From Kiritimatiellales bacterium (GTDB lineage: Bacteria; Verrucomicrobiota; Kiritimatiellia; Kiritimatiellales; Pontiellaceae), in assembly GCA_003246265.1 (NCBI GenBank), contig QKAU01000081.1, forward strand, positions 1 to 63,592: a DNA stretch of 63,592 bases, written 5' to 3'. Positions 210 to 62,575 of the stretch are shown here, piece by piece. The position numbers were made by a program, and so were the translations under genes. The number at the start of each line of letters is the position of its first letter. Within the stretch, counting starts at the first letter, position 1. The notes under the pieces were generated by a model. It did no database searches. It was not told where the DNA came from and was given only the letters and a program-made list of their open reading frames with translations.

Positions 210-238
210 ACAGCCATGCTTTGTGCAGGAATGGCTGT
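210..238. repeat. Inverted repeat upstream of the sulfatase gene
   Basis: ACAGCCAT (210-217) is matched by ATGGCTGT (231-238) around a 13-nt loop. An A-run sits on the left (206-210), so the hairpin followed by U would form only in a minus-strand transcript. A second hairpin, TTGCCTAC and its complement GTAGGCAA, lies just downstream at about 270-297. The two fill much of the 265-bp gap between purL and the sulfatase. They may be a terminator-like structure or a leader element. No convincing promoter was identified. Confidence 0.35.
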
Positions 239-390
239 CGCCAGCCGCAGGCTTCAGTGCTTAATTGACTATTGCCTACTACCCGAAGAGCGTAGGCAAG
301 GCGCTTTCACTGCAAGGAAGATCCGCCAAACCAACCGATCCGTATGGTACGCGCCGGGAGGATGCCCGGCAGAACGATGGAGAGAACTTC

Positions 391-9035: not shown

Positions 9036-9060
9036 CCTGCACGCCCCACCAGGAACGGAA

Positions 9061-9085
9061 AACCCCGCGGCGCAGCGCGGGGTTT
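9061..9085. terminator. Bidirectional terminator between the TPR protein and asd
   Basis: A 9-bp stem AACCCCGCG (9061-9069) pairs with CGCGGGGTT (9076-9084). T-rich sequence follows on the plus strand and TTTTCCGTT on the minus strand, so it can end both convergent transcripts. Confidence 0.75.
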
Positions 9086-9091
9086 CCTATT

Positions 9092-9149
9092 GGTAGGGAC
9101 GACTGTCCCCAGTCGTCCGCGGCGTCCCGAAGCTTCGGCGCGCCCTACC
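9092..9149. repeat. Core copy (copy D) of the dispersed structured repeat
   Basis: It begins GGTAGGG and ends in the complement CCCTACC. Inside are a hairpin GGACGACT-GTCCCC-AGTCGTCC and a second short hairpin around CCGAAGCTTCGG. Compared with copies at 24.7, 53.5 and 55.2 kb, the first stem has A-T where those have G-C, a compensatory change. The right end lies over the asd stop codon: the TAG of asd (minus strand, 9145-9147) is inside CCCTACC. The outer arms found in the full copies are missing here. Confidence 0.7.
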
Positions 9150-10251
9150 GCTCCAGCAGGATGCGCAGCATGCGGCGCAGCGGCTCGGCGGCACCCCAGA
9201 GGAGCTGGTCGCCGACGGTGAAGGCGGCAACGTATTCCGGACCCATCTTCATCTTGTGGATGCGGCCGACCGGGACCGTCAACGTGCCGGAAACGGCGGC
9301 CGGGGTCAGGCGCTTGAGCGTGTCGGGCTTGTTGTTTTCGACGACATCGACCCATTCGTTGTCGTTGCGCAGGATCTCCATGATGGCTTCGACGGAGATA
9401 TCCTTCCTGAGCTTGATGGTCAGGCCCTGGCTGTGGCAGCGCATGGCCCCGACGCGGACGCAGAGGCCGTCGATCGGAATGGGTGTCGCGTTCCCGAGGA
9501 TCTTGTTGGTTTCCGCGTAGCCCTTCCACTCCTCCTTGGTCTGGCCGCCGTCGACCGCCTTGTCGATCCACGGGATCAGCGAGCCGGCCAGCGGGGCGCC
9601 GAACTGCTCGATCGGCAGCTTGTCGCTGCGCAGCGCCGCGCTGACCTTGCGGTCGATGTCGAGAATGGCGGACGCGGGATTCTTGAGGTCTTCGGCGGCG
9701 GCTTCGAACAGGTGGCCCTTCTGGGCCAGCAGCTCGCGCATGTTCTGCGCGCCGGCGCCGGAGGCGGCCTGGTAGGTCATGGTGGAGATCCACTCGACGA
9801 GGCCGGCCTTGAAGAGGCCGCCGATGGCCATCAGCATCAGGCTGACGGTGCAGTTGCCGCCGATGAAATCCTTCTTGCCTTCCGCCAGCGCCTGGTCGAT
9901 GACCGGACGGTTGACGGGATCGAGGATGATGGTGGCGTCGGGCACCATGCGCAGGGCGGAGGCCGCGTCGATCCAGTAGCCGTTCCATCCCTTGGCCCGC
10001 AGCTCGGGGTGCACCTTGTTGGTATAGTCGCCTCCCTGGCAGGTGATGAGGGTCTCCATCTCCATGAGGGCGTCGAGATCGTAGGCGTCCTTCAGGAGCG
10101 ACGGTCCCTTCCCCACGTCGGGGGCCGGTTGCCCGGCCTGGGAGGTGGTGAAGAAGACGGGATCGATGTAGTTGAAGTCGTTTTCCGCCTGCATGCGCTC
10201 CATCAGCACCGAGCCGACCATGCCGCGCCATCCAATAAGTCCGGTTTTCAT
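9145..10251 (-). CDS. asd: Aspartate-semialdehyde dehydrogenase
   Basis: Reduces aspartyl phosphate to aspartate semialdehyde with NADPH, the branch point to lysine/diaminopimelate, threonine and methionine. At 368 residues it matches the E. coli-type enzyme. The Rossmann start reads [13 protein letters not shown], and the catalytic cysteine is Cys134 in GGNCTVS. The E. coli-type length (about 367), rather than the shorter Gram-positive type, fits a Gram-negative host. A GGAGG SD lies eight bases before the ATG. The gene is divergent from the EamA permease and convergent with the TPR protein. Its stop codon lies within a dispersed repeat, so the last residues may have been set by that insertion. 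Confidence 0.96.
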
Positions 10252-24723: not shown

Positions 24724-24850
24724 CGCATGGAGCAGACACCGGTTGAGTTGCCGTTATTGGGCGATGTGTCCCGCACCGCCGTGGACGGCTGGGGACAGCC
24801 GTCCCTACCAGTGGAATCGGCAGCGGCATCCCATCCGTGAACTGCCCTAG
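24721..24850. repeat. Full copy A of the dispersed structured repeat
   Basis: About 130 bp that exactly fill the space between two convergent stop codons: the TAG of the GGQ protein (24721-24723) and the stop of the DEAD helicase (CTA at 24847-24849). It contains GTTGAGTTGCCG on the left, the hairpin GGACGGCT-GGGGAC-AGCCGTCC in the centre, then CCCTACC and CGTGAACTGCCCTAG at the right. The second hairpin is partly degraded here (GGGCGATGTGTCCCGCACCGCC, broken pairs). Confidence 0.85.
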
Positions 24851-46686: not shown

Positions 46687-47085
46687 ATGCCCTACACGAT
46701 TGAATACCGAAAGGAGATCGACTGCATCTTCGCCACCTTCGAAGGCGCGGTCACCATGTCGGTCGTGCGCGAGTACATCGCCGAGCTGCTTCCCCTGCTC
46801 GAGCAGACGGGCTGCCGCCGCCTGCTCAGCGATTCGCGCAATGCCGATATCCAGCTCTCGTCGCGCGACATCATGCAGTTTCCCAAGCTGGCGGCGGAGT
46901 CCCCCCTGACCGAAAACCTCAAGCGGGCGGCGCTCGCGCGGGCCGGTACCAGCGGCTATGAGCTCTACGAAACCCTCTCCAAGCTGCAGCGGCAGCGGCT
47001 GAAGATCTTCACCGACCGCGACGAGGCGCTGGCGTGGCTCCTGGCCGAGGGCGGACCCGACGAGACGCGCATCGATCCGCCGTAG
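46687..47085 (+). CDS. STAS/SpoIIAA-like small protein
   Basis: A 132-residue soluble protein: MPYTIEYRKEIDCIFATFEG and EYIAELLPLLEQTGCRRLLSD, split here, form a beta-alpha-beta pattern. DxRNADIQLSSRDIMQFP and the late segment RLKIFTDRDEALAWLL match the 'SpoIIAA-like/STAS' small proteins that bind lipid or act as signalling partners. No serine for phosphorylation can be pinned down with confidence. It is divergent from the secreted-protein gene by 154 bp, and its own transcript probably ends before the 47.14-kb palindrome. Confidence 0.55.
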   Translation: MPYTIEYRKEIDCIFATFEGAVTMSVVREYIAELLPLLEQTGCRRLLSDSRNADIQLSSRDIMQFPKLAAESPLTENLKRAALARAGTSGYELYETLSKLQRQRLKIFTDRDEALAWLLAEGGPDETRIDPP

Positions 47086-47135
47086 CCCCCGCAGGTTACG
47101 CTATCTGGGCACCATTCCTTCCACCCTCCGCACCC

Positions 47136-47167
47136 CCCTTCTCACACTTCATGAAGTGTGAGAAGGG
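47136..47167. repeat. Perfect 32-bp palindrome upstream of the agmatine deiminase gene
   Basis: Every base of 47136-47151 pairs with 47152-47167, with no spacer: CCCTTCTCACACTTCA and its exact complement. It lies 51 bp after the STAS-like gene and 76 bp before the agmatine deiminase start. The core CACACTTC-GAAGTGTG recurs in pabBC. It may be an operator, a bidirectional terminator-like hairpin, or a mobile palindromic element. Confidence 0.75.
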
Positions 47168-47243
47168 CACGTTGCCCAACGACCTGCCGGGAACCGGGAC
47201 TTTTATCTCGTCTTTTGGGCGGCGGTTGGAAATCCTCCACCCC

Positions 47244-48206
47244 ATGCAGCACCCGACCAAACGCCTCCCCGCCGAATGGGAACCGCAGGACGCCGTCCTG
47301 CTGGCATGGCCCCACTCCGGAACCGACTGGAACCCGGTGCTGCACGACGCCATCCAAACCTTCGACGCCATCGCCGCCGCCATCGAACGTTTCCAGCCGG
47401 TCATGAAGGTCCGCCCCGACGCCTTCGACATCCCGACCAACGACACCTGGTCGCGCGACTTCGGCCCCATCACCATCGAGGAAAACGGCAAGCCCGTCCT
47501 GCTCGACTTCACCTTCAACGGTTGGGGCGGCAAGTTCGAGGCGGGGCTCGACAACGCCGCCACCCGCCACCTCCACGCGCGCGGCGCATTCGGCCAGACC
47601 GAACTGCGCTCCGTCGACCTGGTCCTCGAAGGCGGCAGCATCGAATCCGACGGACAAGGCACGCTGCTTACCACCACGGAATGCCTGCTCAATCCCAACC
47701 GCAACCCGCTCCTCTCCAAGGCGCAGATCGAAATCGTCCTGCAAGAGGAATTCGGCGTGGACAGGATCCTCTGGCTGGAAAACGGCTACCTCGCCGGCGA
47801 CGACACCGATGCCCATATCGACACCCTCGCCCGCCTCTGCCCGGACAACACCATCGTCTATGTCGCCTGCGACGACCCTTCCGACGAACATTTCGAGGCA
47901 CTCAAGGCGATGGAGCTGGAACTGTTGCAGTTTGCCGGATACCGCCTCCTGTCCCTCCCCTGGCCCAAGGCCAAGTTCGACGACGAAGGCCACCGCCTGC
48001 CGGCCACCTATGCCAACTTCCTGGCCATCAACGGCGCCGTCCTCGTCCCCACCTACAACGATCCCGCCGACGCCGACGCTCTCGCCGTGGTTGGGAAAGC
48101 CTTCCCCGGCCGCGAGATCATCGGCATAGATTGCAGTACATTGATTTTGCAGCATGGGTCGCTCCACTGCGTCACCATGCAGCTTCCCAAGGGGGTGCTA
48201 CCATGA
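47244..48206 (+). CDS. aguA: Agmatine deiminase family protein
   Basis: About 320 residues of the guanidino-group-modifying enzyme fold (agmatine deiminase, or the related peptidylarginine deiminase type). Visible are AVLLAWPHSGTDW, the active-site strand NDTWSRDFGPI, EGGSIESDGQGTLLTT, and the nucleophilic cysteine in HGSLHC near residue 310. It converts agmatine to N-carbamoylputrescine. ATG 47244 is selected because the protein begins here in the family; the frame is open upstream through the palindrome. The stop overlaps aguB by 4 bp, so the two steps of the putrescine pathway are coupled. Confidence 0.93.
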   Translation: MQHPTKRLPAEWEPQDAVLLAWPHSGTDWNPVLHDAIQTFDAIAAAIERFQPVMKVRPDAFDIPTNDTWSRDFGPITIEENGKPVLLDFTFNGWGGKFEAGLDNAATRHLHARGAFGQTELRSVDLVLEGGSIESDGQGTLLTTTECLLNPNRNPLLSKAQIEIVLQEEFGVDRILWLENGYLAGDDTDAHIDTLARLCPDNTIVYVACDDPSDEHFEALKAMELELLQFAGYRLLSLPWPKAKFDDEGHRLPATYANFLAINGAVLVPTYNDPADADALAVVGKAFPGREIIGIDCSTLILQHGSLHCVTMQLPKGVLP

Positions 48207-49069
48207 CCATCCTGAAGGCAGGCCTCGTCCAGCAGTCGTGCAGCGCCGACCGTGCGGCGAACCTCGAAAAAAGCATCGCCGCCATCCGCCGCTGCGCGGA
48301 ATGCGGCGCGCAGCTCGTCGTGCTCCAGGAGTTGCACGCCAGCCTCTACTTCTGCGACCAGGAAGACCCGGCGCGCTTCGACCTCGCCGAAACCATTCCC
48401 GGCCCATCGACCGAAACTTTCGGCGCGGTGGCCAAGGAACTGGGCGTCGTGATCGTGGCCTCGCTTTTCGAAAAGCGCGCACCGGGCCTCTACCACAACA
48501 CGGCGGTGGTGCTGGAATCCGACGGAACGATCGCGGGCAAGTATCGCAAGATGCACATCCCCGACGATCCGGGCTACTACGAGAAGTTCTACTTCACACC
48601 CGGCGACCTCGGCTTCACGCCCATCCAGACCTCGGTCGGCAAGCTCGGCGTGCTCGTCTGCTGGGACCAGTGGTATCCCGAAGCCGCGCGCCTCATGGCG
48701 CTGGCCGGCGCGGAGCTCCTGATCTACCCGACCGCCATCGGCTGGGATCCGAACGACACGGCCGAAGAGCAGGCCCGGCAGCGCGAGGCGTGGATCACAA
48801 TCCAGCGCGCACACGCCGTGGCCAACGGCCTTCCGGTTTTGGCCGTCAACCGCGTCGGCCCGGAACCCGACGGCGCGCAGTTCTGGGGATCGAGCTTCGC
48901 CGCAGGCTGCCAGGGCGAGATCCTGATGCAGGCCGATACGGCGGAGGAGACCGAACTGGTGGTCGAGCTCGACCGCGCCCGTTCGGAGACCGTCCGGCGC
49001 ATGTGGCCCTACCTGCGCGACCGCCGCATCGACGCCTACGGCGGTCTGGCCCGCCGCTTCATCGATTGA
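48203..49069 (+). CDS. aguB: N-carbamoylputrescine amidohydrolase
   Basis: A 288-residue nitrilase-superfamily amidase that turns N-carbamoylputrescine into putrescine, carbon dioxide and ammonia. The catalytic triad is visible: Glu43 in LQELH, Lys116 in KYRKMHI and Cys153 in VCWDQW. The additional phrase FWGSSF fits the AguB group. Its ATG lies within the aguA stop (ATGA), so aguA-aguB are translated together and form a complete route from agmatine to putrescine. Confidence 0.94.
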   Translation: MTILKAGLVQQSCSADRAANLEKSIAAIRRCAECGAQLVVLQELHASLYFCDQEDPARFDLAETIPGPSTETFGAVAKELGVVIVASLFEKRAPGLYHNTAVVLESDGTIAGKYRKMHIPDDPGYYEKFYFTPGDLGFTPIQTSVGKLGVLVCWDQWYPEAARLMALAGAELLIYPTAIGWDPNDTAEEQARQREAWITIQRAHAVANGLPVLAVNRVGPEPDGAQFWGSSFAAGCQGEILMQADTAEETELVVELDRARSETVRRMWPYLRDRRIDAYGGLARRFID

Positions 49070-52817: not shown

Positions 52818-52870
52818 CCGTCCCCGCGCGGAACCGTACCTTCGGACCAACCAAACGCGCGAGGTCGGAA

Positions 52871-53467
52871 ATGAAGACGCTGCAGCACCTGTTTGAGAAC
52901 AACCGGACGTGGGCCGAGCGCATCGTGCGCGAGCAGCCCGACTTCTTCGAACAGCTCTCGCGCCAGCAGAACCCCGAATACCTCTGGATCGGATGCGCCG
53001 ACAGCCGCGTGCCCGCCAACGAAATCATCAACCTTCCGCCCGGCGAGGTCTTCGTCCACCGCAACATCGCCAACGTGGTGGTGCATACCGACCTCAACTG
53101 CCTTTCGGTCATCCAGTATGCGGTCGAGGTGCTCCAGGTGAAGCACATCATCGTCTGCGGCCACTACGGCTGCGGCGGCGTCGCCGCCGCGCTCGACACC
53201 GCCGACCACGGGCTGATCGACAACTGGCTGCGGCACATCCGCGACGTCTACCGCTACTATGCCGCCGAGCTCGACGCCATAGGAGAACCCGCCGCGCGCA
53301 AGGACCGCCTGTGCGAACTCAACGTCGTCGAGCAGGTCGCCAACGTCTGCAATACCACCATGGTGCGCAACGCGTGGAAGAACGGCCAGCCGCTCAACGT
53401 CCACGGCTGGATCTACCGCCTCGAAGACGGCCTGCTCCACGACCTCGGCGTCACCGCCAGCGGCTAG
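52871..53467 (+). CDS. can: Beta-class carbonic anhydrase
   Basis: 198 residues. The zinc site is complete: Cys42 and Asp44 in GCADSRVP (41-48), and His98 and Cys101 in VCGHYGCGG. These residues and the length identify the plant-type beta carbonic anhydrase (E. coli Can, 220). It interconverts CO2 and bicarbonate in the cytoplasm. It is convergent with the MarC gene across repeat copy B, and a SulP transporter lies 2 kb away, so bicarbonate supply is conceivable. Confidence 0.95.
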   Translation: MKTLQHLFENNRTWAERIVREQPDFFEQLSRQQNPEYLWIGCADSRVPANEIINLPPGEVFVHRNIANVVVHTDLNCLSVIQYAVEVLQVKHIIVCGHYGCGGVAAALDTADHGLIDNWLRHIRDVYRYYAAELDAIGEPAARKDRLCELNVVEQVANVCNTTMVRNAWKNGQPLNVHGWIYRLEDGLLHDLGVTASG

Positions 53468-53482
53468 CCGGATGAGGCCCGC

Positions 53483-53611
53483 CTAGGGCAGTTCACGAAG
53501 GGGAAGCCGCTGCCGGTTTCACTGGTAGGGACGGCTGTCCCCAGCCGTCCACGGCGGTGTGGGACACACCGCCCTACCCATCAACGGCAACTCAACCGTT
53601 GTCTGCACTAG
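53483..53611. repeat. Full copy B of the dispersed structured repeat
   Basis: 129 bp from CTAG 53483-53486 to CTAG 53608-53611. Oriented opposite to copies A and C. It contains the GGTAGGG-to-CCCTACC core with both hairpins (GGACGGCT-GTCCCC-AGCCGTCC and GGCGGTGT-GGGA-CACACCGCC) nearly perfect. The right CTAG overlaps the stop of the MarC gene (CTA 53608-53610). Confidence 0.9.
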
Positions 53612-54189
53612 CGGCCGGCCAGCCCCTCGACGCCGCGGCGGACCAGCATGACGGCGATGGAAGCCAGCAGCAGGCTGGCGATCTTGGAAAGGATCTTCGA
53701 GCCCGTCCGCCCCAGGACCCGCTCAATGGGCCCCGAGAAGCGGAAGAGCGCTCCCGCCAGGGCCATGTTGGCCAGCAGCGCCGCCGCGGTCGCCGCCTTC
53801 CCGTGGAGCCCGGCCAGCAGGACGCAGGAGGTGAGCACGGCGGGTCCGGTAATCAGCGGCACCCCGATCGGCACCGCGCCGAGGCTCTCCGGATCCGCCT
53901 GGCGCTGGCGCTTCTCCCCCGACAACAGGTCGGTCAGCGCAATGGCGAAGAGGAGCAGGCCGCCCGCGATCATGAAGTCGAACACCTCGAGTCCGAGATA
54001 GGCCAGCAGGCTGGGACCGATCCAGAGGAACACCAGGGCCACGGTGGCGGCGGTCCCGACCGACTGCAGGATCACCCGCCTTCTCCGCGCCGCATCCATC
54101 CCCTCGGTGAGGGCCACGTAGAGCGGCAACACGCCGATGGCGTCGACCGCCACGAAGAGCGGGACGAAGCAGAGCCAGAACGTTTCCAT
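53608..54189 (-). CDS. MarC-family integral membrane protein
   Basis: 193 residues with six membrane helices. Family features: FVAVDAIGVLPLYVALTEG at the start, GPAVLTSCVLLA in the middle, and the final RRGVEGL. Members were once tied to antibiotic resistance but have no proven transport function. It follows the Na/Ca exchanger by 10 bp, so it belongs to the ion-transport cluster. ATG 54189 is used since the protein begins there in homologues. Confidence 0.87.
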   Translation of the reverse strand: METFWLCFVPLFVAVDAIGVLPLYVALTEGMDAARRRRVILQSVGTAATVALVFLWIGPSLLAYLGLEVFDFMIAGGLLLFAIALTDLLSGEKRQRQADPESLGAVPIGVPLITGPAVLTSCVLLAGLHGKAATAAALLANMALAGALFRFSGPIERVLGRTGSKILSKIASLLLASIAVMLVRRGVEGLAGR

Positions 54190-54199
54190 GCATACCTCC

Positions 54200-55144
54200 T
54201 CAAGGCCAGCGCAAGGCAACATAGGCGATGTAGAGGACCAGCAGGAAGGCCCCTTCCAACCGGTCGATCCGCCGCCCTGTCCAGGCCAGCGGGAGCAGGA
54301 TGAGCGCGCTCAGCGCCATGGCCCCGACATCGAGGCGTCCGATGCCCGGTGCCTCCAGCGGCCTGAGCGCGGCCGAAACGCCGAGGATGCCGAGCAGGTT
54401 GAAGAGGTTCGAGCCGACGATGTTGCCGACCGACATGTCGGGTTGCTTCCGCAGTGCGGCCACGACCGAGGTCGCCAGCTCCGGCAGGCTGGTCCCCGCG
54501 GCCACGATGGTCAGGCCGATGATGGCCTCGCCGACGCCCCACGCGCGGGCGATGCCGATGGAGCAGTCGATGAGCAGTTTCGAGCCGCCCCCGAGCATGG
54601 CCAGTCCGCCGGCGACGAACAGCAGGTCGAGCCACAGCCGCGCGGGGGCGTGGGGCACGGCCTGTTCGAATTCGCGCTCGACCGCGGCATTGTGCTGGCG
54701 CCGGGCCATGCGGACGATATGCGCGGTGTAGGCGGCCAGCAGCAGGACCATCAGCCCCCCGGCCCATTGCGGAACGGAACAGAAGAGCAGCAGGGCGGAC
54801 AAACCCAGCGTCGTCGCGATCATGACCGGGATGTCGAGGCGCAGCAGCGCCGACTCGATGCGGAGCGGACAGACGATGGCGGCCAGCCCGAGAATGGCCG
54901 CGATGTTGAAGATGTTCGAGCCGACGACGTTGCCGACGGCGATGTCGCCATGCCCGTTGAAGACGCTCTGCACGCTCACGAGCAGCTCCGGCGCGCTGGT
55001 CCCGAAGGCGACGACCGTCAGGCCGACCACCAGCGGCGAGAGCCCCAGCCGGATGGCCAGCGCGGCGCCGCCGCGCACCAGCAGATCGGCCCCGCCCGTC
55101 AACACCAGCAGCCCCGCCAGCAACCCCATCCATTGGACGACCAT
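54200..55144 (-). CDS. Sodium/calcium (CaCA) exchanger
   Basis: 314 residues, ten membrane helices in two inverted repeats. Both alpha-repeats are seen: GTSAPELLVSVQS with VGNVVGSNIFNI in the first half, and GTSLPELATSVVA with VGNIVGSNLFNL in the second. These phrases bind Na+ and Ca2+ in YrbG/NCX-type exchangers. ATG 55144 is preferred over a longer frame that would run through repeat copy C. It lies 193 bp after the SulP stop, the repeat filling most of the gap. Confidence 0.93.
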   Translation of the reverse strand: MVVQWMGLLAGLLVLTGGADLLVRGGAALAIRLGLSPLVVGLTVVAFGTSAPELLVSVQSVFNGHGDIAVGNVVGSNIFNIAAILGLAAIVCPLRIESALLRLDIPVMIATTLGLSALLLFCSVPQWAGGLMVLLLAAYTAHIVRMARRQHNAAVEREFEQAVPHAPARLWLDLLFVAGGLAMLGGGSKLLIDCSIGIARAWGVGEAIIGLTIVAAGTSLPELATSVVAALRKQPDMSVGNIVGSNLFNLLGILGVSAALRPLEAPGIGRLDVGAMALSALILLPLAWTGRRIDRLEGAFLLVLYIAYVALRWP

Positions 55145-55214
55145 GCAGCCCCCCTCGAGTTGCGCGTATTGTCGGGCATCGCCCGTGCCGATCAAGCCGA
55201 ATCGTCCTGTGCGC

Positions 55215-55341
55215 CTAGCGGTTCGCGTTTGAGTTGCCGTGGATGGGAAGGGCGGTGTGTCCCGCACCGCCGTGGACGGCTGGGGACAGCCGTCCCTACC
55301 CGTGGAATCGGCAGCGGCATCCCATTCGTGAACTGCCCTAG
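55215..55341. repeat. Full copy C of the dispersed structured repeat
   Basis: 127 bp from CTAG 55215-55218 to CTAG 55338-55341. Same orientation as copy A. Its right end again coincides with a stop codon (SulP, CTA 55338-55340). The left arm differs from A and B in the first 12 bases, then shares GAGTTGCCG, the two hairpins, GGAATCGGCAGCGGCATCCC and the CGTGAACTGCCCTAG end. Confidence 0.88.
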
Positions 55342-57014
55342 CAGGTTCCGTCCACCCCGGCGACGAGGCCCCGCGCCCGTTCGAGCGCGTCGTCGATCGT
55401 GGGGTGGAAATTCCTGCGGCCGACCTCCTTCATGAAGCCGGAGCGGATGAACACGGCGCGCGGCTGCGGCAGGACGCCGGAAAAGATGAGCTCGGTCCCG
55501 TCGCGGCGGCATTTGCGGTGGAGCTCCCGCAGGACATGGAGCCCGGTGGCGTCGATGGCCGGCACGTTGCGGATGCGCAGGACCAGCGCGGCGGGCGGCC
55601 TTTCGAGGCCGCGCATGGCATTGCGGAACGTATCGGCCATGCCGAAGAAGAAGGGTCCGCTGACTTCGAACACTTCGACCCCGGGGGGCACCTCGCGCGT
55701 GGCCAGCGACATCGGATCGTCATCGGAATCGCCGTCGCCGCGCAGATTGCGGGTGATGGCGGAGACATCGGCGATTTCGGCCATGCGCCGGATGAAGAGC
55801 AGCGCGGAAAGGACGACGCCGACCTGCACCGCGACGGTCAGGTCGACGAGCACCGTCAGCACGAAGGTGAGCAGCAGGACGAAGCGGTCGCTGCGCGGGC
55901 CCTTGAGGAGGGAGATGAAGTGGTGCCGCTCGCTCATGTTGTAGCTCACCACGACGAGGATGCCGGCGAGCGTCGCCAGCGGGATCGCCTTGGCGAGCGG
56001 CGCGCAGGCCAGCAGGAGCAGGAGCAGGACGAGGGCATGGACCATGCCGGCCACCGGGGTGCGGGCCCCGCTCTTGATGTTGGTGGCGGTGCGCGCGATG
56101 GCCCCCGTTGCCGGTATGCCGCCGAAGACGATGCCCGCGATGTTGGCGATCCCCTGCGCGACCAGCTCGGTGTCCGGCCGGTGCTGGCCGCCGGTCATGC
56201 CGTCGGCCACCGTGGCGGAGAGGAGCGATTCGATGGCGGCCAGCAGCGCAATGGTGAAGGCCGGGGCAACGAGGTGGTCGAGGTTCACCCCGTGCAGGGA
56301 GGGCAGCGCGGGCGACGGCAGCAGGCGCGGCAGGTCGCCGAAGCGGCTGCCGATGGTTTCGATGTCGAGGTGCAGCAGCGCGGCGGCCACGGTGGCCAAA
56401 AGCATGGCGACCAGCATGCCGGGAACGCGCGGCGCGTAGCGGCGCAGCAGCACGATGAGCGCGACCGTGCCGATCCCGAGGGCGGCCGCGGCGGGATTGA
56501 CCGTATCCAGGGCCCCGAGCATCGCGCCCCACTTGGGCAGGAAGTGCGAGGGCACCTCGGCCATGCGCAGGCCGAGCAGATCCTTGACCTGGGTGGAGAA
56601 GATCACCAGCGCAATGCCGGAGGTGAAGCCGGTGACCACCGGGAACGGGATGAAGCGGATCAGCCCGCCGAGGCGGAAGAGCCCGAAGAGGATGAGCAGC
56701 GCACCGGCCATCAGCGTGGCCCAGCAGAGCCCCGCATAGCCGAACTCGGCGAGGATGCCGGAGACGATCACGACGAACGCGCCGGTCGGCCCACCGATCT
56801 GCACCCGGCTGCCGCCGAGCAGGGAGATGAGGAAGCCCGCGACGATGGCGGTGAAGAGCCCGCGTTCGGGCGGAAGTCCGCTGGCGATGGCGAAGGCCAT
56901 CGCCAGCGGGAGCGCCACCACCCCGACGGTGGCCCCCGCCGCGAGGTCCGCGGCGAGGGTGGTGCGATTGTAGTCCTTGAGCAACGAGAAGAACTTGGGG
57001 TGGAACACGGCCAT
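55338..57014 (-). CDS. SulP-family anion transporter with STAS domain
   Basis: 558 residues. The membrane domain opens with LAAGATVGVVALPLAMAFAI and GGSRVQIGGPTGAFVVIVSG (split), the family pattern, and a C-terminal STAS domain (about 440-550) begins at VFEVSGPFFFG. Substrates in the family include sulfate, bicarbonate and C4-dicarboxylates; sequence alone cannot choose. It follows the ArsB/NhaD-type permease by 13 bp and is probably cotranscribed. The STAS domain could be an input for regulatory partners. Its stop is within repeat C. Confidence 0.9.
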   Translation of the reverse strand: MAVFHPKFFSLLKDYNRTTLAADLAAGATVGVVALPLAMAFAIASGLPPERGLFTAIVAGFLISLLGGSRVQIGGPTGAFVVIVSGILAEFGYAGLCWATLMAGALLILFGLFRLGGLIRFIPFPVVTGFTSGIALVIFSTQVKDLLGLRMAEVPSHFLPKWGAMLGALDTVNPAAAALGIGTVALIVLLRRYAPRVPGMLVAMLLATVAAALLHLDIETIGSRFGDLPRLLPSPALPSLHGVNLDHLVAPAFTIALLAAIESLLSATVADGMTGGQHRPDTELVAQGIANIAGIVFGGIPATGAIARTATNIKSGARTPVAGMVHALVLLLLLLACAPLAKAIPLATLAGILVVVSYNMSERHHFISLLKGPRSDRFVLLLTFVLTVLVDLTVAVQVGVVLSALLFIRRMAEIADVSAITRNLRGDGDSDDDPMSLATREVPPGVEVFEVSGPFFFGMADTFRNAMRGLERPPAALVLRIRNVPAIDATGLHVLRELHRKCRRDGTELIFSGVLPQPRAVFIRSGFMKEVGRRNFHPTIDDALERARGLVAGVDGTC

Positions 57015-57027
57015 CGGGGCTCCGGGA

Positions 57028-58335
57028 TTAGTGGACCATGAAGTAGCGGAGGTAGAGGTAGAGGTGGGCGATCAGCAGCGACGCGATCATGAAGGGGAAG
57101 CCCCACTTCGTGAAGGACCAGAAGGTGATCCGGCAGTTGTTGCGGTTGGCGATCTGCGAGATCACCACGTTGGCCGAGGCCCCGACCAGCGTACCGTTGC
57201 CGCCCAGGCAGGCGCCCAGCGCCAGGGCCCAGAGCAGCGGCTCGGCGATATGCACCTTGACCAGCTCCGCATCCTCGATCCCCATCTGCTGGGCGAAGAT
57301 CGGGATGATCCCCTTCACCAGCGGGATCATCGCCATGACCAGCGGGATGTTGTCGACGATGGCCGACGCGATGGCGCTGAACCAGAGGATGGTGAAGACG
57401 GTGGCCATGAGGTTGCCGCCGCAGGCGTGCAGGATCAGTTCGCCCATCTTCTCGAAGACGTGGTGGTGCTCCAGCGCGGCGATCATCATGAAGAGACCCG
57501 AGAAGAAGAGGATGGTGTTCCACTCGACGTGCGCCAGGGCGTGGTGGACATCCTTCCGGCAGACCAGCACCATGAGCATCGCGCCGGCCAGGGCAATGAT
57601 GCCCGGCTCGATGTTGAGCAGGCGGCCACCGAAGAAGCCGGCGAGGATCAGGGCGAAGACGGCCAGGGCCTTCTTGAGCACGGCAGGCTGGAGGATCGCC
57701 TTTTCCGGGCGCGACTGCTCGACCCGCTTGCGGGTATGCTCGTGGGTCCGCACCGACCTGCGCATCACCAGCGCCATGAAGGTGAGCAGCACCACCATCA
57801 TGATGAGCACCGGCGGGCCGAGGCAGAGCAGGAAGTCGTTGAAGGAGAGGTGGGTCTGGGATCCGATCAGGATGTTGGGCGGGTCGCCGACCAGGGTCGA
57901 GGTGCCGCCGATGTTGGAGAAGACCGCCTCCATGATGAGGATCGGCGTGGCCGGCAGCTCGAGCAGCTGGCAGAGCAGGATGGTGATCGGCGCCATCAGG
58001 ATCACGGTCGTGACGTTGTCGAGCCAGGCCGACAGGAAAGCGGTCAGGACCATGAAGAGGACGGCGATGACGAGGCCGTTGCCGCGGGCAAGCCGGGCCA
58101 GCTTGATGGCGAGCCACTCGAACACGCCGGTATCGGTCAGCGTGTTGACCACGACCATCATGCCGATCAGCAGGAAGAGCACGTTGAGGTCGATCGCGTG
58201 GAGCGCCTCCTCGTAGCCGATGAGGTGCAGGCCGATCACCAGCCCCGCGCCGATGAGCGCGGCGATGGTCTTGTCGACGAGTTCGGTCGCAATGAAGAAG
58301 TAGACGACCAGGAAGAGAACAATGGGAAGCCACAT
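57028..58335 (-). CDS. ArsB/NhaD-superfamily (ion transporter) permease
   Basis: 435 residues, about 11-12 membrane helices. Family features are LDNVTTVILMAPITI, GGTSTLVGDPPNILIG, and in the second half DNIPLVMAMIPLV and CLGGNGTLVGASANVV. This is the IT-superfamily pattern shared by NhaD Na+/H+ antiporters, ArsB and the P-protein/citrate group; GDPPNI and DN are typical of the NhaD/P-protein side. Substrate is inferred as Na+ or an organic anion. GGAG lies before ATG 58335. It directly follows the EIIA-CBS gene (16 bp). Confidence 0.85.
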   Translation of the reverse strand: MWLPIVLFLVVYFFIATELVDKTIAALIGAGLVIGLHLIGYEEALHAIDLNVLFLLIGMMVVVNTLTDTGVFEWLAIKLARLARGNGLVIAVLFMVLTAFLSAWLDNVTTVILMAPITILLCQLLELPATPILIMEAVFSNIGGTSTLVGDPPNILIGSQTHLSFNDFLLCLGPPVLIMMVVLLTFMALVMRRSVRTHEHTRKRVEQSRPEKAILQPAVLKKALAVFALILAGFFGGRLLNIEPGIIALAGAMLMVLVCRKDVHHALAHVEWNTILFFSGLFMMIAALEHHHVFEKMGELILHACGGNLMATVFTILWFSAIASAIVDNIPLVMAMIPLVKGIIPIFAQQMGIEDAELVKVHIAEPLLWALALGACLGGNGTLVGASANVVISQIANRNNCRITFWSFTKWGFPFMIASLLIAHLYLYLRYFMVH

Positions 58336-58351
58336 GGCGGGAATCTCCAGG

Positions 58352-59269
58352 TTAGTAGTTGACCACGTTGTCGAGCACGGTGCCCTTGTCGATCGTGCCG
58401 ATCCACCGGTTCTGCGCATCCACCACGTAGAGCTTCGGGTAGTTGCGGATCGTGAGGTCGAAGACGACCTCCATGATGGTGTAGTCGGGCGGCACGGTGC
58501 GCGCGTTGTCCTCCATGATTTCGCCGGCGGTCATGTTGCGCTCGTCGGCGAAATACTTCTCGAAGGGGTCGAACTCGGCGATGAACGAGACGCTCTTGAG
58601 CTTGGCGAAGAAGTCGGGCAGCCCGTAGCGGAAGAGGCGGCCGACGGTGATTTCGCCGAGGATCCCGTGGTTTTCGTCGACCACCGGCACCGAGTAGAGG
58701 TTGTTGACGCCCATCAGGTGCGTGCACCGGGAGACGGGCTCGGAGGCCTCCACGCTCCAGCGCGGCGGGCGCATGATGTCGCGGGCGACCAGCGGCTTGT
58801 CGATGCGCGGGTTCTGGCCCTTGAAGATGTCGCGCAGCGCCTCGGGCGTCGCCGCGGCGAGGACCTCGGCCCGCACGGCATCGTCGAACAGCAGGCGCGA
58901 GAGCTGGGCCATGAGCTTGAGCGAGATGGAGGGGTCGGAGGTCGGCACGAGGAAGAGGCAGACGACCTGGACGGGGAACTCCTCGAACATCACCGGTTCG
59001 GGCAGGGTCGCCACGGCGAAGATCGCCTGGCTGAGATGCTCGAGCCGCGCGTGCGGGAAGGCGATCGACTTGCCGACGGCCGTGGTGCGCTGCGCCTCGC
59101 GGCGGATGAGCGCCTGGAGGATCGCCTCGTGGGAAAGCTCGGGGTTGACCTCGTAGAAGGCCCCGGTGCAGAGCTGCTTCAGGATGGCGTCGAACGCGGC
59201 ATCGCGGTTGGCGGCCGCCAGACCGGGCAGCCAGGATTCCATTTTGCGGGTATAGTTCAGTATGTTCAT
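58352..59269 (-). CDS. Stand-alone EIIA domain fused to a CBS pair
   Basis: 305 residues. The first 150 resemble PTS fructose/nitrogen-type EIIA: IAFPHARLEHL contains the phosphorylatable His73, with a downstream QVVCLFLVPT strand. A CBS pair follows (about 155-305, DIMRPPRW, GILGEITVG, GEIMEDNART and the final KGTVLDNV). No EIIB or EIIC partner exists nearby, so it is probably regulatory: the EIIA domain would read phosphorylation state and the CBS pair nucleotides. AGGAG lies before ATG 59269. Placed 11 bp after the CBS-only gene and immediately before a cation permease. Confidence 0.87.
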   Translation of the reverse strand: MNILNYTRKMESWLPGLAAANRDAAFDAILKQLCTGAFYEVNPELSHEAILQALIRREAQRTTAVGKSIAFPHARLEHLSQAIFAVATLPEPVMFEEFPVQVVCLFLVPTSDPSISLKLMAQLSRLLFDDAVRAEVLAAATPEALRDIFKGQNPRIDKPLVARDIMRPPRWSVEASEPVSRCTHLMGVNNLYSVPVVDENHGILGEITVGRLFRYGLPDFFAKLKSVSFIAEFDPFEKYFADERNMTAGEIMEDNARTVPPDYTIMEVVFDLTIRNYPKLYVVDAQNRWIGTIDKGTVLDNVVNY

Positions 59270-59280
59270 GGCCTCTCCTC

Positions 59281-59748
59281 CTACAGGCTGGCTTCGGCCT
59301 TGGCGCGCAGGTAGTGCCCAAGGATATGCTTGGCTTCGAGAATGCCGACGACACGGCCCTCGTCGTCGACCACGGCGATTTCCCGGACATGGTTGCGGTC
59401 CATGAGCTCGAGCACCTGCCCGAGGGGGGCGTTCGCCTGGATGGTCACGGGTTCTTCGGCCATCTCCTGCGCGGCGCGGGAATTGAGCACGAAGACGATG
59501 GCCGGGAGCATCTCGTGCGCATCGCCCTGCTGGCGGGAGAGCTTGAGGATCTCCATGGCGATCTGCTTGGCCTGGACGACGCCGCAGAGGCGCCCCTGGG
59601 CATCTTCGAGATAGACCTTGTAGCGGGTCGACGAGCAGAGCAGGTCGGCGAGCTTTTCGAGCGGGGCGGAAGCCTCCGCCCGCAGGAAGGCGGCATCGAG
59701 CAGGTAGCCGATGTCCTTGACGGTGGTATTTGCCAGATTGGCTTTCAT
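59281..59748 (-). CDS. CBS-domain protein
   Basis: 155 residues with a CBS pair. The core holds KVYLEDAQGRLCGVV in the first unit and VREIAVVDDEGRVVGILEAKHIL in the second, the typical 'V-D-G-V-G' turns that bind adenosine ligands. No catalytic domain is attached. AGGAG precedes ATG 59748. It sits between the small anchored protein and the EIIA-CBS gene, suggesting a soluble sensor for the antiporter cluster. Confidence 0.85.
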   Translation of the reverse strand: MKANLANTTVKDIGYLLDAAFLRAEASAPLEKLADLLCSSTRYKVYLEDAQGRLCGVVQAKQIAMEILKLSRQQGDAHEMLPAIVFVLNSRAAQEMAEEPVTIQANAPLGQVLELMDRNHVREIAVVDDEGRVVGILEAKHILGHYLRAKAEASL

Positions 59749-59855
59749 GGGTGTTCTCCTGGGGATGGGTCGTTGGGAAACCGCGCCCGCGCGGGCGCAA
59801 GCGAAGGCGGACGGCCGCCCTGTGCGGCCCCCGCGCCAAGCAATCGCTTCCCCGG

Positions 59856-60182
59856 CTAGATCCGCAGGGGAACGCTCCAGCCAAAGGATTTGCCCCCCGA
59901 GAAGATGTCGGGCGGATTGCTGGCGATCTGGTCGAAGCGCGTGTTTTCGGCAAGGACGGCGAGGTCCTGGCCAAGCAGCACCAGCGTCTCGCGCAGGCGC
60001 AGGTCGCGGCCATCCTCCTCCAGCGCCCCCTCGCAGAGCCCCTCCGCCTCCCCTTCGGCCAGGCGGACCACCGACGCATTGCGCGTACCGCCGCAGGAGG
60101 CGACCTCGAGCATCCAGGCGCCGGCGAAGCCCAGCACCATCAGGAGCAGGATCCACCGCTGGGCTGGAGGGTTCGCTTGCAT
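59856..60182 (-). CDS. Small membrane-anchored protein of unknown function
   Basis: 108 residues with one N-terminal hydrophobic helix (RWILLLMVLGFAGAWMLEV, about 9-27), then a soluble acidic part with two cysteines. No domain is recognised. It begins 5 bp after the CPA2 antiporter stop in the same transcript, so an accessory role to the transporter is inferred from position only. Confidence 0.55.
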   Translation of the reverse strand: MQANPPAQRWILLLMVLGFAGAWMLEVASCGGTRNASVVRLAEGEAEGLCEGALEEDGRDLRLRETLVLLGQDLAVLAENTRFDQIASNPPDIFSGGKSFGWSVPLRI

Positions 60183-60187
60183 GGGTC

Positions 60188-61864
60188 CTAGGCGGCCACG
60201 GCCTGGCGGTTGACGAGTTCGGCGTTCACGCGGCGCTGGGCGGCGCGCAGGTCGAGCACGCCGAGCAGCCGGCCGCTCTCCTCGTCGGCGATCACCGGCA
60301 GCGCCTCGGCCTGCATGTTCTTCATCTCGCGGAGCGCCTCGCCGAGGTTCGTCCCGGCCAGGAGGCGGTCGCGCAGCGGCTGCATGACGTCGCCGACCAC
60401 CAGCCATTGCCAGGTGTCGCGGTCGACGACCAGCTCCTTGAGCATGTCGAAGGTAAGCACGCCGATGGTCCGGCCGTCGCCGTCGACGACGGGATAGACG
60501 AAGGTATCCTGTTCGGCGAAGTGCTGGACCACCTGGGCCAGCGGCGTCCCCTCGGGCAGCGGGACGATCTCCTCGTTGACGACATCGGCCACCTTCAGTT
60601 CGGCCATGATGTCCTCTTCGGTGATGTTGCGGCCGATCTCGCCGGCCTTCTTGATGGCCAGCTTGGCGAAGGCGGGCCCGATGAGCTGGACGCAGAGGGT
60701 GGTGGCGGTGACGGTGAAGATGATCATGTCGCCCAGGCTCATCCCTTCGGTGACGCGGATATCCTGGAGGTTCTGGCTGGCGACGATGGAGAGGCCGACG
60801 GCGACGCCGCCCTGGGCGAAGAGCGCCATGCCCATGTAGTTCTGGACCGGCTTGTCGGCCTTGGACCAGCGGGCGCCCCAGTAGGAGCCGACCCACTTGC
60901 CGATGCTGCGCATCAGCACATAGGCCGCCACCAGCGCCCAGATCCACGGCGGCATGCTGCCCAGCGCCAGCCGCGCGCCGACCAGCACGAAGAAGATGAT
61001 GTAGATCGGCGTCGCGAAGGAGCGCACCGTCTCGAACAGCTGCTTCGAGCGCCGCGGCGCGAGATTGATCAGCACGATCCCCACCGCCATCGTCGCGAGG
61101 ATGACGTCGAGGTGGAAGGCGACCGAGAGGCCGATGCAGACGAGCAGGATGCCCACCGAAATCCCCAGCCGCTTCTCCGTCTGCGGCAGGTAGTGCATCA
61201 TGGCGTTGAGGATGAAGCCGCAGGCCACGCCCAGCACGATGGCGCCCGCCAGCTCGAGGCCGGTGCGCCCGAGCGTCGCGGCGATCGACTCGCCGCCGCT
61301 CTGCGTCAGGATCGAGGCGGCGCTCGTGCCGAGGCCGTAGAGGGTCATCGCCAGCGCGTCGTCGAGCGCGACGATGGCGACGATCGCGGTGGTGAGCACG
61401 CCGGCCGAGCGGTATTCCCAGAGCACGTCGATCGTCGAGGCCGGGTCGGTGGCCGAGGCGATCGCCCCGAAGACGACGCCGGCGGCGATGGCCGTGACCC
61501 CGTCGTGGCAGACCAGCCAGACGATCAGCGAGGAGAAGAGGCCGACGAGCAGGAAGGCCGCCAACCCCTCGCCCAGCAGGATGAGGGTGAACTGCTTGCC
61601 GTATTTCTTGAAGATCGAGCCGCTCAGCTCGCCGCCCACCAGGAAGCCGATCACGCCCAGCGCGAAGTTGTTGAAGGGCCGCAGCGCCGCCACGTCCGAG
61701 GCATGCAGCAGCCCGAGGCCGGTATCGCCGATCAGCACGCCGACGACGATGTAGCCCACCACCTGGGGGATCCCCAGCTTCTGGAAGATCCACGCCCCGA
61801 CCACGCCGCCCGCGATGCAGATGCCCAGGACCCCGAGAACGCCCAGCTGGAAGTCAGGCGGCAT
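60188..61864 (-). CDS. CPA2-type cation:proton antiporter with C-terminal CBS pair
   Basis: 558 residues. Thirteen-helix Na+/H+-exchanger fold with the conserved unwound helix 5 acidic site seen as SATDPASTIDVL. The opening 'GIPQVVGYIVVGVLIG' is typical of KefB/NhaS3-like proteins. From about 425 a CBS pair (VADVVNEEIVPLPEG, TIGVLTFDML, DVMQPLRDRLL, GRLLGVLDLR) replaces the usual TrkA domain. It likely exchanges K+ or Na+ for protons under CBS control. It starts 4 bp before the upstream stop (SD GGGAG inside it), so it is coupled to the HTH-EIIA gene. Confidence 0.88.
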   Translation of the reverse strand: MPPDFQLGVLGVLGICIAGGVVGAWIFQKLGIPQVVGYIVVGVLIGDTGLGLLHASDVAALRPFNNFALGVIGFLVGGELSGSIFKKYGKQFTLILLGEGLAAFLLVGLFSSLIVWLVCHDGVTAIAAGVVFGAIASATDPASTIDVLWEYRSAGVLTTAIVAIVALDDALAMTLYGLGTSAASILTQSGGESIAATLGRTGLELAGAIVLGVACGFILNAMMHYLPQTEKRLGISVGILLVCIGLSVAFHLDVILATMAVGIVLINLAPRRSKQLFETVRSFATPIYIIFFVLVGARLALGSMPPWIWALVAAYVLMRSIGKWVGSYWGARWSKADKPVQNYMGMALFAQGGVAVGLSIVASQNLQDIRVTEGMSLGDMIIFTVTATTLCVQLIGPAFAKLAIKKAGEIGRNITEEDIMAELKVADVVNEEIVPLPEGTPLAQVVQHFAEQDTFVYPVVDGDGRTIGVLTFDMLKELVVDRDTWQWLVVGDVMQPLRDRLLAGTNLGEALREMKNMQAEALPVIADEESGRLLGVLDLRAAQRRVNAELVNRQAVAA

Positions 61865-61868
61865 CGCG

Positions 61869-62519
61869 CTACTCCCCCGTCACCAGTTGTTCGTAGATGA
61901 AGGCCGGATCGTTCGACTCGATGATCCGCTGGCGGGTTTCGGCATCCTTCAGGCGGCTGCTGATGTTCGAGAGCGCGCGGATGTACTTCGCGTGCTGGTC
62001 GGAGCGCGCCGCCAGCATGCAGACGATCTGGACCGGCTTGTTGTCGAGCGAGGAGTAGTCGCCGATCGGATGCCGGCAGACCGCCACCGCCATCACCAGG
62101 TCCGTCACCGAGTCGATGCGCACATGCGGCACGCCGACGCCGAAGCCGATGCCGGTGCTCATCAGCTCCTCGCGGGCGAAGATCCCTTCGAGCAGCTCGT
62201 CGCGGTTCTTGACCGAGGGCGAGGCGGCCAGCAGGTCGACCAGCCGGGTCAGCACCGTCTTCTTGTCGGCCTCGTCGATCACCAGCACCCGTTCGGGGGC
62301 GAGGAGGGCGCCGTTGACGGCCACGCCGGGCTTGGCGGCCTGCTGGGCCTTGCTGGAGAGGCGGGAGTTGACCCAGTTTTCGACGTCTTCGCGCTTGAAG
62401 CGCCAGGTGGTACCGAGCTTGCCGCCGGGCAGGTCGCCCTTCTGCGCCCAGTCGTAGACCGTGCGCTCGGAGACGCGCAGGTAGGCCGCCACCTCTTCAA
62501 TCGTCATGATTTCGTGCAT
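61869..62519 (-). CDS. Helix-turn-helix protein fused to an EIIA (PTS-Ntr) domain
   Basis: 216 residues: excisionase-type winged HTH (1-52, MTIEEVAAYLRVSERTVYDW and the KLGTTWRF wing) followed by an EIIA(Ntr)-like domain (70-216) with the phosphorylatable His132 in GVGVPHVRID. This is the first gene of the minus-strand ion cluster and could be its autoregulator, binding DNA depending on EIIA phosphorylation. AAGGA lies about eight bases before ATG 62519. The fusion is seen in other bacteria as 'PTS IIA plus HTH', but the signal it receives is unknown. Confidence 0.85.
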   Translation of the reverse strand: MHEIMTIEEVAAYLRVSERTVYDWAQKGDLPGGKLGTTWRFKREDVENWVNSRLSSKAQQAAKPGVAVNGALLAPERVLVIDEADKKTVLTRLVDLLAASPSVKNRDELLEGIFAREELMSTGIGFGVGVPHVRIDSVTDLVMAVAVCRHPIGDYSSLDNKPVQIVCMLAARSDQHAKYIRALSNISSRLKDAETRQRIIESNDPAFIYEQLVTGE

Positions 62520-62547
62520 AAACGCATCCTTCCGTTGAATTCGCGGA

Positions 62548-62575
62548 AAACTACACCCAACCGCACGGTTTGCAA
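62548..62575 (-). promoter_or_regulatory. Possible promoter of the ion-transport cluster
   Basis: On the minus strand TTGCAA (62575-62570), 16 bases, then TAGTTT (62553-62548). It is positioned 29 bp upstream of the HTH-EIIA start. The match is only moderate, and nearby TTGAAA could also serve. Confidence 0.3.

What the first reader, a model, noticed from the sequence alone, without database searches (positions are those of the whole stretch)
53608..62519. EIIA/CBS-controlled ion-transport cluster
In one minus-strand run lie: HTH-EIIA fusion, CPA2 antiporter with CBS pair, a small anchored protein, CBS protein, EIIA-CBS fusion, ArsB/NhaD-type permease, SulP transporter with STAS domain, Na/Ca exchanger and MarC. 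Two proteins keep the phosphorylatable EIIA histidine (His132, His73), and three carry CBS pairs. No EIIB/EIIC sugar permease is present. This suggests that phospho-state (PTS-Ntr type) and adenine-nucleotide sensing are wired directly into cation and anion exchange. The individual families are known; the combination as a regulated unit is the candidate new system.
Basis: partly seen in the sequence, partly recalled or inferred. Interest (0 to 1): 0.65.

Follow-up and report, generated by a model that had tools for sequence, protein, structure and literature searches.

The report
Phosphate-relay control of ion transporters
A Kiritimatiellota bacterium keeps a run of genes in which sugar-PTS-like phosphate-relay proteins sit beside ion exchangers, and comparison across many genomes suggests that one of them is a detachable regulator that plugs into the exchanger next to it, tying ion traffic to the cell's energy state.

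Summary
The genes are there. The conserved unit is an operon of seven genes (55338-62519), not nine. HTH-EIIA > CPA-CBS > small membrane protein > CBS > EIIA-CBS > CitMHS-type exchanger is kept in order in 12 other Kiritimatiellales genomes (the small protein in most), and SulP often follows. NCX and MarC are not kept; they lie between two copies of a dispersed repeat. Both EIIA histidines are invariant. The genome encodes EI, GAF-EI, HPr and HPr kinase, but no PF02378 EIIC. All six of its EIIA domains lie beside or inside ion-exchanger genes.

The loop between the CBS domains is highly conserved, predicted disordered, different when the partner is ClC, and tracks transporter divergence best. 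I read EIIA-CBS as a trans-acting, partner-specific regulatory subunit, like PtsN on YcgO in E. coli. HTH-EIIA probably controls the operon through a near-unique site. Adenine-nucleotide sensing is unproven. New variant of a known kind.

The parts
62543..62575 (-). Conserved promoter/operator-like site TTGC-N6-TGCGGTTNGNTGTAGTTTNNCGC upstream of HTH-EIIA (dyad TGCG...CGCA)
   Evidence: Upstream regions of 12 orthologs compared; found upstream of HTH-EIIA in 9 of 9 genus genomes, no reversed-pattern control hits, one extra 3-mismatch hit in G002
61869..62519 (-). HTH-EIIA: excisionase/MerR-like HTH_17 + PtsN-type EIIA, 216 aa, phospho-acceptor His132; probable phospho-state-dependent regulator of the operon
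   Evidence: Pfam PF12728, PF00359; His132 invariant in 14; PtsN structures are the closest solved relatives
60188..61864 (-). CPA-type cation/proton antiporter with C-terminal CBS pair, 558 aa
   Evidence: PF00999 + 2 CBS; 63-81% identical orthologs directly after HTH-EIIA
59856..60182 (-). Small membrane-anchored protein, 108 aa, hydrophobic N-terminus and C-terminal GWxMPLRI motif
   Evidence: No Pfam hit; same place, length 99-108 aa and C-terminal motif in 13 sequences although only 15-31% identical to the window's
59281..59748 (-). Stand-alone CBS protein, 155 aa
   Evidence: PF00571; 55-66% identical orthologs in the same place
58352..59269 (-). EIIA-CBS: PtsN-type EIIA (His73) + CBS pair with a conserved inter-CBS loop (residues 217-240), 305 aa; proposed trans regulatory subunit of the downstream exchanger
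   Evidence: PF00359 + 2 CBS; invariant His73; model and fold matches; transporter next door in 104 of 105
57028..58335 (-). CitMHS-type exchanger (relative of ArsB, MamN, NhaD), 435 aa
   Evidence: PF03600 E=1e-87; NCBIfam MamN, DASS, ArsB, NhaD all below cut-off
55338..57014 (-). SulP anion transporter with STAS domain, 558 aa; last gene of the conserved operon
   Evidence: PF00916 + PF01740; follows CitMHS in nine relatives
55226..55341 (-). Copy of a 116-nt dispersed intergenic repeat that marks the downstream boundary
   Evidence: 92% complementary partner at 53483-53598, further copies at 24740-24850 and on another contig
54200..55144 (-). Na/Ca exchanger; not part of the conserved unit
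   Evidence: PF01699; no match at this place in relatives
53608..54222 (-). MarC-family membrane protein; not part of the conserved unit
   Evidence: PF01914; no match at this place in relatives
52868..53467 (+). Beta-carbonic anhydrase, a conserved neighbour of the SulP end of the operon
   Evidence: PF00484; 70-82% identical genes near the SulP end in seven relatives

Best explanation
A regulatory, non-sugar PTS (EI or GAF-EI > HPr > EIIA) sets the phosphorylation of EIIA domains according to PEP, energy and nitrogen state, and these EIIA domains control ion exchange. In this operon EIIA-CBS is a soluble regulatory subunit of the CitMHS-type exchanger encoded just downstream. Its EIIA half reports the phosphate relay through His73, its CBS pair may report a nucleotide, and the conserved loop between the CBS domains docks on the transporter. 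HTH-EIIA (His132) binds the conserved site upstream of itself and sets expression of the whole operon, which also supplies a CBS-gated cation/proton antiporter and a SulP anion (perhaps bicarbonate) transporter. Shown by sequence: gene content, conserved order, invariant histidines, presence of EI/HPr/HPr kinase, near-obligate transporter adjacency, partner-linked loop, near-unique upstream site. Inferred: phosphotransfer to these histidines, physical docking, direction of control (probably the unphosphorylated form inhibits, as for PtsN and YcgO), DNA binding by HTH-EIIA, and any CBS ligand.
For: Gene order kept in 12 relatives at 54-84% protein identity. His73 in 103 of 103 scored EIIA-CBS proteins, His132 invariant in 14. 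Relay genes present; PF02378 EIIC absent in the genome and in 38 of 43 order genomes, although the six genus genomes examined carry 10-13 EIIA domains each. All six EIIA domains in the genome are next to or fused to PF00999 or CitMHS genes. EIIA-CBS is followed by CitMHS or ClC in 104 of 105 genes. Residues 217-240 are the most conserved stretch in a set not selected on the loop, largely low confidence in the model, different in the ClC-partnered clade, and segment 214-244 has the highest partial correlation with transporter identity (0.74; windows within the EIIA half at or below 0). Upstream site found once per genome in eight of nine genomes. Precedent: unphospho-PtsN binds and inhibits the CPA1 antiporter YcgO (PMC11808508).
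Against: No biochemistry. The ClC-partnered clade is one bacterial family, so the partner-linked loop switch is probably one evolutionary event. Loop-transporter correlations share a phylogeny and were not tested with a tree-based null. The second active-site histidine of E. coli PtsN is not conserved in either family. HTH-EIIA also occurs without a transporter beside it in seven of 20 sampled loci. Substrates of CPA and CitMHS cannot be read from sequence.
Confidence: 0.66

Rival explanations
1. Only transcriptional coupling: HTH-EIIA is a phospho-responsive regulator and the transporters are simply its regulon; EIIA-CBS does not touch the exchanger but acts on another target or is a phosphate sink.
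For: HTH-EIIA leads the operon and a conserved site lies upstream of it; HTH-EIIA exists alone elsewhere.
Against: EIIA-CBS keeps the transporter next door in 104 of 105 genes, mostly without HTH-EIIA nearby outside the order, and its loop tracks the transporter. EIIA is fused to antiporters, ClC, CNNM and amino-acid permeases elsewhere.
Confidence: 0.17
2. The CBS domains are the working sensors (ATP/AMP or c-di-AMP) and the EIIA domains are scaffolds without phosphotransfer.
For: CBS folds resemble AMP- and c-di-AMP-bound pairs; the genome has a diadenylate cyclase domain protein and a relative fuses EIIA to DAC.
Against: The phospho-acceptor His and its Arg-Glu...PH surroundings are the invariant part of the EIIA half, while the CBS nucleotide motif is incomplete.
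Confidence: 0.12
3. Chance or housekeeping clustering of ion-homeostasis genes, with no regulatory link.
For: NCX and MarC beside the operon are indeed unrelated additions.
Against: Order kept in 12 relatives; both modules recur apart, and in G150 in a different order, with the same partners.
Confidence: 0.03
4. The EIIA domains belong to a sugar PTS whose EIIB/EIIC parts lie elsewhere or in a family not searched.
For: Five of 43 order genomes have PF02378; other EIIC superfamilies were not searched.
Against: No PF02378 in the genome; 10-13 EIIA domains without PF02378 in the genus genomes examined; ion transporters, not sugar permeases, beside all six EIIA genes.
Confidence: 0.02

Closest known systems
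PtsN (EIIA-Ntr) inhibiting the K+/H+ antiporter YcgO in Escherichia coli (PMC11808508)
   Same: PtsN-type EIIA, PTS relay without its own permease, target an antiporter with a C-terminal regulatory region; model in which the phospho-state gates the antiporter
   Different: PtsN is a free single-domain protein with several targets, and by general knowledge ptsN lies near rpoN, away from ycgO; here the EIIA is fused to a CBS pair and encoded directly before its presumed target, usually a CitMHS-type exchanger
PTS-Ntr control of potassium uptake through KdpDE (e.g. Sinorhizobium fredii, PMC9239096)
   Same: PTS-Ntr output onto ion homeostasis; this genome has a GAF-EI beside glnB-amtB
   Different: No evidence here for TrkA or KdpD as targets; exchangers instead, with dedicated EIIA paralogs
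LacS, sugar transporter with a fused EIIA-Glc-like domain phosphorylated by HPr
   Same: EIIA-type domain phosphorylated to modulate a secondary transporter; [quoted passage not shown]
   Different: Different EIIA superfamily, sugar substrate, cis fusion
CBS-regulated transporters (MpfA/CorB type, OpuC, MgtE)
   Same: CBS pair as nucleotide-gated regulator of ion or osmolyte transport (PMC10710835)
   Different: Here the CBS pair is on a separate protein that also carries a phosphorylatable EIIA, and the canonical nucleotide motif is incomplete

Membership tests
PtsN-type EIIA (PF00359) | EIIA_2 fold and family score | tested here: met
   E 4e-29 and 5e-22, over cut-off; closest solved relatives by sequence are PtsN entries; Foldseek 1a6j TMt 0.86 for EIIA-CBS
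PtsN-type EIIA (PF00359) | phospho-acceptor histidine in xPHx | tested here: met
   His132 in 14 of 14; His73 in 16 of 16, 29 of 29 and 103 of 103 sequences
PtsN-type EIIA (PF00359) | second active-site histidine (by alignment to E. coli 1a6j) | tested here: not met
   Ser in the EIIA-CBS orthologs (varied in distant ones), Tyr in HTH-EIIA at the aligned position
PTS-Ntr (regulatory PTS) | EI with GAF domain, HPr/NPr, EIIA, no permease | tested here: met
   GAF-EI (L068), EI, three HPr domains, no PF02378
PTS-Ntr (regulatory PTS) | phosphotransfer from EI/HPr to these EIIA domains | not testable with these tools
   needs purified proteins
Sugar PTS | EIIC permease | tested here: not met
   PF02378 absent in the genome and in 38 of 43 order genomes; other EIIC superfamilies not searched
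Adenosine-ligand CBS pair | G-h-h-T/S-x-x-D nucleotide motif | tested here: inconclusive
   T kept in CBS1 of CPA and of EIIA-CBS, D missing; neither in the other four CBS domains
Cation/proton antiporter (PF00999) | Na_H_Exchanger domain | tested here: met
   E 5e-35; assignment to CPA1 or CPA2 not settled
CitMHS family | PF03600 over cut-off | tested here: met
   295 bits; substrate unknown

The most novel reading that the evidence does not exclude
EIIA-CBS proteins form an undescribed family of swappable adaptors across Kiritimatiellota, Lentisphaerae, Hydrogenedentota and Coatesbacteria. A PTS phosphate switch and a CBS ligand site are carried on one soluble subunit that docks through its inter-CBS loop onto whichever ion exchanger (CitMHS-type or ClC) it is paired with, making ion exchange the main output of the PTS in bacteria that lack sugar permeases.
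Probability: 0.45. Interest if true: 0.78.

Novelty: new variant of a known kind. Interest (0 to 1): 0.62.

Why it matters
It would extend the well-studied case of PTS control over a cation antiporter (PtsN-YcgO) to a whole bacterial group in which the PTS seems to have no sugar permease and its EIIA proteins attach to ion exchangers. It names a specific docking segment (residues 214-244) and a specific DNA site (62543-62575), so the open question of what permease-free PTS chains are for becomes directly testable. A cultured carrier exists (Pontiella sulfatireligans, L166).

Tried and rejected
NCX and MarC as members: rejected, not conserved and flanked by a dispersed repeat. Sugar PTS: no PF02378. 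Strong sigma-70 promoter or terminator by consensus scan: nothing above shuffles. A diverse alignment (A4) could not be used for the named-genome scan, so A1 was used; because one of its search patterns lies in the loop, loop conservation was judged on A4, not on A5. Literature: searches for EIIA with CBS domain, with antiporter and fusion, in Kiritimatiellota, with chloride channel, and PtsN with CBS domain gave no description of EIIA-CBS or of EIIA-antiporter fusions in titles, abstracts or passages seen; subscription journals are mostly not held, so this is weak evidence of novelty.
Full report
What is in the window. Seven of them are tightly packed: gaps of 4, 5, 107, 11, 16 and 13 bp from HTH-EIIA to SulP (coordinates). 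NCX starts 193 bp after SulP, and a 116-nt repeat lies between. That repeat has a 92% complementary copy on the far side of MarC and more copies in the window and on another contig. The genome (G000, 3.0 Mb, 96% complete) belongs with the order Kiritimatiellales, probably family Pontiellaceae: close orthologs lie in Pontiella sulfatireligans F21 and other Pontiellaceae.

Conservation. A search of 43 genomes of the order with EIIA-CBS found 35 with a relative. Around the close orthologs, HTH-EIIA > CPA-CBS > CBS > EIIA-CBS > CitMHS are in the same order and strand in 12 other genomes, two more loci agree as far as their contig reaches, and SulP follows in nine relatives. NCX and MarC occur at none of these places. 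Between CPA and CBS all but two of the relatives with that interval encode a 99-107-aa protein with a hydrophobic N-terminus and the C-terminal motif GWxMPLRI, though the rest diverges to 15-31% identity with the window's. In many relatives SulP is followed by a zinc-ribbon-EIIA gene, and a beta-carbonic anhydrase lies close by; the window has the carbonic anhydrase at 52868-53467 (+).

Two modules. HTH-EIIA + CPA-CBS also stand as a pair away from EIIA-CBS in other genomes (L146, L153, L157; CPA follows in 12 of 20 sampled HTH-EIIA loci). HTH-EIIA stands beside EIIA + ClC in one locus (L244) and alone in seven. EIIA-CBS + CitMHS is by far the commoner pair. In G150, from another class, the same parts are joined in another order: HTH-EIIA > EIIA-CBS > CitMHS > CPA-CBS (L109).

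The relay. The genome encodes EI, HPr and HPr kinase together (with what look, from the translations, like ribosome-hibernation-factor and LptB genes), a second EI with a GAF domain beside a PII gene and amtB, and two further HPr domains. It has no PF02378 permease, and 38 of 43 order genomes lack it, while the six genus genomes examined have 10-13 EIIA domains. All six EIIA domains of the genome are at ion-exchanger genes: EIIA then PF00999 (C56), a PF00999-EIIA fusion (C5), EIIA-CBS then CitMHS (C41), zinc-ribbon-EIIA about 1 kb before PF00999 (C55), and two in the window. In other bacteria the same EIIA domain is fused to CNNM-CBS, ClC-CBS, PF00999, KdpD, amino-acid permease and diadenylate cyclase domains. 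The fusions show that EIIA with ion transport is a repeated theme; they do not by themselves show the mechanism.

EIIA-CBS as a transporter partner. Profile search of 387 genomes of the phylum found relatives in 170. After removing known duplicates, 105 EIIA-CBS genes with sequence downstream were examined: 103 have a CitMHS or ClC gene directly downstream by script, one more has a ClC gene whose reading frame was over-extended (L266), and one has neither (L139). ClC is the partner in nine loci, the best-placed ones all from one family, f6. Loci from Hydrogenedentota, Coatesbacteria and Lentisphaerae follow the same rule. His73 is kept in all 103 scored.

The loop. The AlphaFold2 model (mean pLDDT 85) has a PtsN-like EIIA half (1a6j, TM-score 0.86 by target length) and a CBS-pair half. 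Residues 218-232 have pLDDT under 50, yet residues 217-240 are the most conserved 24-residue window of the protein in alignment A4, whose members were not picked through the loop. Proteins next to CitMHS carry a loop with an x-P-[F/L] core (FDPFEKYF, FEPFAELL and the like); proteins next to ClC carry GCFIPxG-type sequence instead. Over 95 CitMHS-linked loci, pairwise identity in 31-residue windows was compared with pairwise identity of the transporters, controlling for the rest of EIIA-CBS: window 214-244 gives a partial correlation of 0.74, windows within the EIIA half are at or below zero, and the loop remains top (0.63-0.66) with 21 representatives at under 60% transporter identity. This fits a docking segment. 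It is not a phylogenetically corrected test, and the ClC switch is probably one event.

DNA site. Upstream of HTH-EIIA the stretch TTGC-N6-TGCGGTTNGNTGTAGTTTNNCGC is nearly invariant while its surroundings are not. It occurs upstream of HTH-EIIA in nine of nine genus genomes and nowhere else in them but for one 3-mismatch hit; the reversed pattern gives none, and the one genome from another family (G029) has none. It contains a dyad TGCG...CGCA and could be promoter, operator or both. Autoregulation by HTH-EIIA is an inference.

Nucleotide sensing. The G-h-h-T/S-x-x-D motif is incomplete: Thr in the first CBS of CPA and of EIIA-CBS, no Asp, and neither in the other four CBS domains. Fold matches include AMP- and c-di-AMP-bound pairs, and the genome has one diadenylate cyclase domain. 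The ligand is open.

Known background. Unphosphorylated PtsN binds the C-terminal region of the CPA1 antiporter YcgO and inhibits it (PMC11808508); PTS-Ntr acts on potassium uptake in rhizobia (PMC9239096); LacS is described as the sole bacterial transporter controlled by direct phosphorylation (PMC10710835). I found no paper in the library that describes EIIA-CBS proteins. I therefore place the finding as a new variant of PTS-Ntr control of ion transport, with a new regulatory subunit family as its most interesting part.

Noticed in passing
window 53483-53598, 55226-55341, 24740-24850; L066:13699-13814: 116-nt dispersed intergenic repeat beginning CTAGGGCAGTTCACG with stable internal stem-loops; two inverted copies flank NCX-MarC, as if that block had been inserted or captured.
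   Followed up: partly
L144:4137-5477 (-), genome G011: EIIA fused to DacZ_P and a diadenylate cyclase (DAC) domain: a possible PTS-controlled c-di-AMP synthase in the same genus; in the window's own genome the DAC domain (C72) is not fused to EIIA.
   Followed up: partly
L191, L203, L205, L209, L149, L142: EIIA fusions to CNNM-CBS (Elusimicrobia), ClC-CBS (Spirochaetaceae), PF00999 (Brocadiaceae), KdpD (Deltaproteobacteria) and amino-acid permeases (Kiritimatiellales).
   Followed up: partly
L161:7845-8687 (+) and orthologs; L066:7016-7861 (+) in the own genome: Zinc-ribbon (Zn_ribbon_9)-EIIA protein of about 280 aa, often the next gene after SulP in relatives; no function known to me.
   Followed up: partly
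window 59856-60182 (-): Fast-evolving small membrane protein with a nearly fixed C-terminus GWxMPLRI between CPA-CBS and CBS; possible new family of transporter accessory peptide.
   Followed up: partly
L068 (C31) 5256-9548: GAF-domain EI (PtsP-like) directly beside amtB and a PII gene, linking the relay to nitrogen sensing.
   Followed up: partly
L130 (genome G163): One locus with HTH-EIIA, CBS, EIIA-CBS, CitMHS, EIIA, CPA, EIIA, CPA in a row: a chain of EIIA-exchanger pairs.
   Followed up: no
window 47034-49069 (+): Agmatine deiminase-like and N-carbamoylputrescine amidase-like genes in a row (putrescine route), judged from the translation only.
   Followed up: no
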